From Plectrocnemia conspersa (Eukaryota > Arthropoda > Insecta > Trichoptera > Polycentropodidae), in contig VTFK01000190.1 in the NCBI GenBank assembly GCA_009617715.1, positions 124,001 to 188,000 on the forward strand: DNA of 64,000 nt. Direction: 5' to 3'. The position numbers were made by a program, and so were the translations under genes. The notes beneath the pieces were generated by a model, which saw only the letters and a program-made list of their open reading frames with translations, was not told the origin of the DNA and made no database searches. Each line of letters opens with the position of its first letter. Position 1 is the stretch's first letter. Of this stretch, positions 37,289-57,088 are shown piece after piece.

Positions 37289-37439
37289 ATGAAGTGCTGC
37301 ATTTTGTTGGCACTGGCCGGATGCTTCGTGGTGCAACGGGTGCACGCGCACGTGGCCCTCACGTTCCCGCCGGCCAGGAAATACGATTTGGACTTTTTGG
37401 ACAATGCGAGGACCAAGGGGCCGTGCGGAATGCCAAAAG
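37289..37439 (+). CDS. Exon 1: signal peptide and mature N-terminal histidine
   Basis: The ATG at 37289 is preceded by GTGAAA and starts a 20-residue signal peptide: a basic start, hydrophobic CCILLALAGCFVV, then a small-residue cleavage site VHA. Cleavage there leaves His21 as the first mature residue, followed by VALTFPPARKY. A free N-terminal His is the hallmark of copper-brace enzymes (LPMOs) and their relatives, and His-x-x-Leu/Phe with Pro-Pro-x-Arg close behind is usual in such families. Cys46 in the GPCG motif probably forms a disulfide with the cysteines of exon 4. An upstream in-frame GTG at 37247 is not a credible start. The exon ends at a phase-1 GTGAGG donor. Confidence 0.85.

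Positions 37440-57088: not shown

What the first reader, a model, noticed from the sequence alone, without database searches (positions are those of the whole stretch)
37289..57088. Single-pass membrane protein joining an LPMO-like domain to two DOMON domains: a possible self-contained redox system
Seen: the predicted signal cleavage (VHA|H) exposes an N-terminal His, followed by His-rich WHLAYAH next to Gly-Gly-Phe, paired Cys, EGF repeats, two DOMON domains, a SEA-like module and one membrane helix. Known: LPMOs bind copper through a mature N-terminal His plus a second His, and fungal LPMOs receive electrons from a DOMON-like cytochrome domain of cellobiose dehydrogenase. Inference: donor and acceptor domains are here fused on one insect cell-surface protein, perhaps acting on chitin, glycans or matrix protein, or only handling copper. 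Whether this architecture has been characterised I cannot tell.
Basis: partly seen in the sequence, partly recalled or inferred. Interest (0 to 1): 0.85.

Follow-up and report, generated by a model that had tools for sequence, protein, structure and literature searches.

The report
Cell-surface copper-and-haem protein (nahoda)
An insect cell-surface protein called nahoda appears to carry an enzyme-like copper site and two haem-type electron-carrier domains on one chain; the same combination turns up from green seaweeds to insects and sea cucumbers, and I found no study of what it does.

The parts
37289..37348 (+). signal peptide, residues 1-20 (VHA|H)
   Evidence: in 112 proteins tallied of 124 held, residue -1 is G/A/S/C/T in 112 and residue -3 is V/A/S/T/G/I/C in 112
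37349..48615 (+). histidine-brace LPMO-like domain, residues 21-151 (exons 1-4: 37289-37439, 46310-46380, 48308-48405, 48483-48616)
   Evidence: Pfam LPMO_10 35.4 bits, cut-off 23; fold of a relative's domain; exons
37349..37351 (+). His21, mature N-terminus, candidate copper ligand 1
46375..46377 (+). His73, candidate copper ligand 2
   Evidence: aligned with TdAA15A; His in 102 of 106 rows
48583..48585 (+). Phe141, aromatic residue at the axial position
   Evidence: Phe in 103 of 106 rows; aligned with the Tyr of TdAA15A 'EYRNCADI'
48616..48936 (+). EGF-like repeats, residues 152-232; apparent one-base insertion at about 48777
   Evidence: EGF models; frame; single place in genome
48937..49116 (+). 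DOMON1, first part, residues 233-292
49117..52903 (+). Pro-Glu-Pro-Ser linker inside DOMON1, residues 293-597, with a furin-like RRRR run (exon 51660-51686)
52904..54147 (+). DOMON1, second part, residues 598-730; Met601 at 52913-52915 and His716 at 54103-54105
54276..54911 (+). DOMON2, residues 751-919; Met808 at 54447-54449 and His903 at 54861-54863
   Evidence: Pfam DOMON 9.5e-50, best stretch 767-887
55223..55744 (+). SEA-like module, residues about 938-1067
   Evidence: Pfam SEA 24.4 bits, cut-off 26.4; above cut-off in P0101 and P0106
55808..55870 (+). single membrane helix, residues 1089-1109
   Evidence: range; aligned with the hydropathy maximum of relatives such as P0001 and P0002
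55871..57088 (+). cytoplasmic tail and stop codon

Best explanation
The gene is the insect nahoda ortholog. The protein is a membrane-tethered extracellular copper-and-haem redox protein. After signal cleavage, His21 (amino group and ring) and His73 form a copper histidine brace with Phe141 behind it. Each DOMON domain holds a b-type haem through a Met/His pair, and electrons pass from haem to the copper. In ulvophyte algae the chain can end in cytochrome b561, so cytosolic ascorbate can be the source; in insects the source would be a separate b561 protein or an extracellular reductant. For the output I lean slightly to O2/H2O2 chemistry by the reduced copper on nearby matrix or cell-surface material, over hand-off of Cu(I). 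Shown by computation: architecture, fold of the LPMO-like domain and of DOMON2, ligand conservation, distribution, algal b561. Inferred: cofactors, electron flow, output.
Against: No cofactor, distance or activity measured. Second His replaced in P0074 (Gln) and two Priapulus isoforms (Asn). Pfam LPMO_10 does not reach its cut-off in the full-length Priapulus, sea-cucumber, hemichordate, scallop and algal-type proteins scanned; their N-terminal domain is known by alignment and search E-values. No match to the CDH-cyt model here. The insect protein has no b561. DOMON1 was not folded alone. Domain arrangement in the full-length model unknown to me (no coordinates). Second-sphere Gln/Glu absent at position 1, which lowers the oxidative output.
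Confidence: 0.58

Rival explanations
1. Copper acquisition: the brace captures Cu(II), the DOMON haems reduce it, and Cu(I) is released to a transporter, as Bim1 works with Ctr1 in a fungus.
Against: Below the BIM1-like cut-off here (20.0 against 27); closest sequence and top fold match is AA15, not X325; the Asp fourth ligand of X325 could not be tested; Bim1 itself is reported as not redox active (PMC7529816, passages).
Confidence: 0.25
2. A classical polysaccharide-cleaving LPMO (AA15-like), for example acting on chitin, with built-in electron donors.
For: AA15 is the best match by sequence and VIA fold comparison; silencing of AA15 genes affects insect development (PMC5823890, passages).
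Against: His-His spacing 52 against 90 in an AA15-type protein of the same genome; Tyr in place of Gln/Glu at second-sphere position 1 in 102 of 106 rows (PMC10472438, passages); present in algae and echinoderms, where chitin is not an obvious shared substrate (my knowledge).
Confidence: 0.12
3. A cell-surface adhesion or matrix protein whose copper and haem sites are no longer used.
For: EGF, SEA and long Pro-Glu linkers are typical of surface scaffolds (my knowledge); a few relatives have lost the second His; DBH shows that a DOMON can lack haem (PMC4846438, passages).
Against: His1, the second His, Phe and the Met/His pairs are kept from algal-type relatives to insects, which a pure scaffold would not require.
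Confidence: 0.17

Closest known systems
Drosophila nahoda and 'DOMON-like domain-containing protein nahoda' records
   Same: same architecture; 54-67% identity to named insect relatives over the matched part of residues 1-300
   Different: none seen; taken as the ortholog. No function established in the papers found
AA15 LPMO (TdAA15A, PDB 5MSZ)
   Same: best VIA fold match and best PDB sequence match; second His, CAD motif
   Different: 38 residues fewer between the two His than in the same-genome AA15-type protein, Tyr at second-sphere position 1, and DOMON domains on the chain
X325 / Bim1 copper proteins (LaX325, PDB 6IBH/6IBI)
   Same: histidine-brace domain of similar fold, subthreshold Pfam match; Bim1 is membrane-anchored by GPI (PMC10952591, passages)
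   Different: no DOMON domains in those proteins (my knowledge); fourth ligand Asp not tested here; Bim1 reported not redox active (PMC7529816, passages)
Cellobiose dehydrogenase cytochrome domain (AA8)
   Different: in fungi it is joined to a flavoprotein and passes electrons to a separate LPMO (my knowledge); here DOMON domains share the chain with the LPMO-like domain; the Pfam CDH-cyt model does not match this protein
CYBDOM proteins (CG8399, SDR2, plant HYP1)
   Same: DOMON with Met/His pair; algal-type nahoda relatives also end in cytochrome b561
   Different: no LPMO-like domain described for them in the passages read; insect nahoda has no b561

Membership tests
LPMO superfamily (histidine-brace fold) | LPMO beta-sandwich fold | tested here: met
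LPMO superfamily (histidine-brace fold) | Pfam LPMO_10 gathering score | tested here: met
   35.4 bits for the domain, 28.1 in the whole protein, cut-off 23; not reached in several distant relatives scanned at full length
LPMO superfamily (histidine-brace fold) | N-terminal His after signal cleavage | tested here: met
   of 112 relatives 5 models lack the start and the other 107 have the His; -1/-3 rule in 112 of 112 tallied; cleavage itself not observed
LPMO superfamily (histidine-brace fold) | second brace His | tested here: met
   His73 in this protein; 102 of 106 rows; distance to His21 not measured
LPMO superfamily (histidine-brace fold) | axial Tyr or Phe | tested here: met
   Phe141; Phe in 103 of 106 rows
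active LPMO | second-sphere Gln/Glu | tested here: inconclusive
   position 1 (two before the axial aromatic) is Tyr in 102 of 106 rows; the other backbone position used by some AA10 (PMC10472438) could not be examined
AA15 | long region between the two His (that it forms the substrate face is my knowledge) | tested here: not met
   spacing 52 against 90 in the same-genome AA15-type protein (L006)
AA15 / LPMO | copper-dependent oxidative cleavage of a polysaccharide | not testable with these tools
   needs enzymology
X325 / Bim1 (PF20238) | Pfam gathering score | tested here: not met
   20.0 bits, cut-off 27; 26 of 30 relatives match at E up to 0.01
X325 / Bim1 | Asp as fourth copper ligand | not tested
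   no residue-level alignment to LaX325 obtained
haem DOMON (AA8 / CYBDOM type) | DOMON fold | tested here: met
haem DOMON (AA8 / CYBDOM type) | Met and His haem ligands | tested here: met
   conserved in both domains; in P0108 Met610 and His703 fall within about 3 residues of the CDH ligands by the aligned ranges (His163 of CDH is recalled); residue-level superposition not seen
AA8 (Pfam CDH-cyt, PF16010) | Pfam gathering score | tested here: not met
   no match listed at E up to 1; best relative P0101 26.0, cut-off 27
haem DOMON (AA8 / CYBDOM type) | bound haem b | not testable with these tools
   needs spectroscopy
CYBDOM | cytochrome b561 on the same chain | tested here: not met
   not in this insect protein; above cut-off in P0113, P0114, P0119 and below it in P0112, P0115, P0118
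nahoda family | LPMO-like + EGF + DOMON architecture | tested here: met

The most novel reading that the evidence does not exclude
Nahoda belongs to a histidine-brace class whose power supply is built in. In the form kept in ulvophyte algae, cytosolic ascorbate reduces cytochrome b561, electrons cross the plasma membrane, pass along DOMON haems, and arrive at an extracellular histidine-brace copper on the same chain. Animals have a SEA module with one helix, or a GPI-like tail, in place of b561 and draw on a separate donor. If inherited vertically (no tree was made here, so transfer is not excluded), it would be a membrane-powered copper oxygenase or copper reductase as old as the split of green algae and animals.
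Probability: 0.35. Interest if true: 0.9.

Novelty: new variant of a known kind. Interest (0 to 1): 0.72.

Why it matters
LPMOs need an electron donor, and what that donor is in animals is, to my knowledge, open. Here a brace domain and candidate haem donors sit on one chain, and in some algal-type relatives the membrane electron source is there too. That makes the donor question directly testable in Drosophila and in one recombinant protein. It could also reveal an unknown copper or oxidative step at animal cell surfaces.

Tried and rejected
Led nowhere: PDB sequence searches with a mollusc extra DOMON, an algal DOMON-b561 stretch and the Priapulus DOMON1 gave no useful match, so the haem-ligand equivalence rests on fold ranges, Pfam positions and papers. 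A search with a domain annotated BIM1-like did not reach LaX325. The search for a second copy to judge the one-base shift found only the same place. The paper search for CG12781 gave one paper, unrelated by title and abstract. The nahoda-or-DOMON search mostly returned people or addresses named Domon. Of 11 papers holding DOMON and 'lytic polysaccharide monooxygenase' I saw passages of three (PMC6950343, PMC5823890, PMC11354708) and of eight only the listing.

Considered and rejected: His68 as brace ligand (not kept in algal-type proteins; His73 aligns with TdAA15A). The Asp of the CAD motif as an X325-type ligand: AA15 has the same Asp, and algal-type proteins replace it. Chance similarity: excluded by Pfam, fold and conservation. 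The full-length model for domain arrangement: not usable without coordinates; mean pLDDT 77.8 with a low-confidence linker. Foldseek alone was weak for the LPMO-like domain, with T-cell-receptor and other Ig-like chains from rank 12 on. In the full-length model no VIA row covers DOMON1; this is no evidence against it. Rows absent from a VIA list are not counted.

Rows dropped: one search aligned 105 of 112 relatives plus the window protein; its pattern required the His. Five left out lack the start of the model; P0070 and P0112 failed my end pattern though both have the His. The -1/-3 tally used 112 of 124 proteins; the other 12 lack the N-terminal pattern. One search used 24 of 112 relatives and its print left out columns with more than 45% gaps. 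Searches used 30 relatives, one search used 43. In one search, DOMON2 hits of P0096, P0098 and P0119 fell on DOMON1; without them Met is 118 of 118 and His 114 of 118, four matches ending before it. Several algal-type entries look like fragments (P0121-P0124) or fused gene models (P0115, P0117). Only Bryopsis and Ostreobium are named in the table; Ulva is read from an identifier, the other algal-type rows are placed by similarity.

Full report
What is in the sequence. The open frames and splice sites give a gene of 19 exons from ATG 37289 to the stop ending at 57088. All 18 introns are GT-AG and the product has 1287 residues. To keep the frame, one base near 48777 in the EGF region must be left out. 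A search of the window's genome (393 Mb, 959 contigs) found that stretch only once, so I cannot tell an assembly error from a real allele; the intact coding sequence on both sides argues for an error.

Identity. A search with residues 1-300 gave 112 relatives, and all 112 rows also list a DOMON domain. The search admits only proteins of 0.55-1.75 times the query's length, so stand-alone relatives of the N-terminal domain could not appear. Several rows are named 'DOMON-like domain-containing protein nahoda'. The gene is the insect ortholog of nahoda (the fly gene number CG12781 is recalled).

The copper site. In 106 aligned rows (105 relatives and the window protein) the first residue is His in all, but the selection pattern required it. 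Of the 112 relatives, 5 lack the start of the model and the other 107 have the His. The test that does not depend on the pattern is the signal-peptide rule: in the 112 proteins tallied of 124 held, the residue before the His is G, A, S, C or T in 112, and the third before it is V, A, S, T, G, I or C in 112. The second His is His73 (102 of 106); exceptions are what looks like a broken model (P0063), Gln in Halyomorpha and Asn in two Priapulus isoforms. The axial aromatic is Phe141 (103 of 106). Two features depart from classical LPMOs. The residue two before the Phe is Tyr in 102 of 106 rows, where AA9, AA11 and some AA10 have the conserved Gln/Glu (PMC10472438, passages). And 52 residues lie between the starts of the two His codon positions, against 90 in an AA15-type protein encoded elsewhere in the same genome.

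Distribution and the algal clue. Relatives occur in insects, crustaceans, chelicerates, a millipede and springtails, molluscs, Priapulus, Capitella, Saccoglossus, a sea cucumber and a feather star, and in ulvophyte algae: Bryopsis and Ostreobium by name, Ulva by identifier. No list here shows absence elsewhere. In algal-type proteins the chain can end in cytochrome b561: Pfam 30.2, 28.6 and 28.7 bits in P0113 (Bryopsis), P0114 and P0119 (cut-off 23), and 21.4, 18.6 and 15.3 in P0118, P0115 and P0112, below it. The Ulva protein P0120 shows no b561 match. Three named deuterostome relatives (P0103, P0108, P0109) end in a hydrophobic tail with one to three residues after it, like a GPI signal. The window's genome has five b561 matches on four other contigs, possible separate donors.

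How it works. The conserved parts fit a relay from haem to a histidine-brace copper at the cell surface. What the reduced copper does is open. The AA15-like fold and Phe favour oxidative chemistry; the short region between the His, the missing second-sphere Gln/Glu and the wide taxonomic spread favour something other than cleavage of one polysaccharide, such as copper reduction and hand-off. I give the relay 0.58.

What is known. Voshol et al. [quoted passage not shown] they propose no function for it there. Sabbadin et al. 2018 (PMC5823890, passages) hold DOMON only as an author's name, and EGF not at all. Nahoda with Drosophila is found in five papers, once each; I saw the passage in each: a candidate for positive selection in D. 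mojavensis, accessory-gland secondary cells, a list of candidate genes, a list of genes in S2 cells after infection, and a frequent earthworm transcript named 'Nahoda protein'. No paper in the library holds 'cytochrome b561', 'DOMON' and 'LPMO' together. Most subscription papers are not in the library, and I did not see the original X325 and DOMON papers.

Limits. No coordinates of the models, so no distances. DOMON1 not folded alone. No tree, no expression data.

Noticed in passing
window 48777: Apparent one-base insertion that breaks the nahoda frame in the EGF region; found once in the genome, so error or real allele is unresolved.
   Followed up: partly
window 51660-51686: Furin-like RRRR run in the linker inside DOMON1; similar basic runs occur at the same place in several insect relatives. 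Cleavage would split the chain within one domain.
   Followed up: no
window 42985-43066, 46097-46171, 46420-46493: Three tRNA genes (Ser, Arg, Lys) lie inside introns of the gene, on the same strand.
   Followed up: no
L006 (G000:C156:1164476-1165036): An AA15-type LPMO in one open frame of 353 aa with an apparent C-terminal membrane helix, read by eye; membrane-bound AA15 may deserve a look.
   Followed up: partly
L008-L010 (G000:C941:210525-217806): Three LPMO_10 matches close together, two of them with stops inside the match; perhaps a small cluster with introns or decayed copies.
   Followed up: no
P0101, P0116: Some relatives carry more DOMON stretches (4 and 3 counted), with CDH-cyt matches below cut-off (26.0 and 17.5 against 27); P0102 and P0107 are annotated with that model.
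   Followed up: no
P0074, P0105, P0106: Halyomorpha and Priapulus proteins have lost the second brace His while keeping His1; natural loss-of-site variants useful as controls.
   Followed up: no
PMC2099499: A 'Nahoda protein' is among the most represented transcripts in earthworm EST libraries made for toxicology (passage); a possible place to look for its expression.
   Followed up: no
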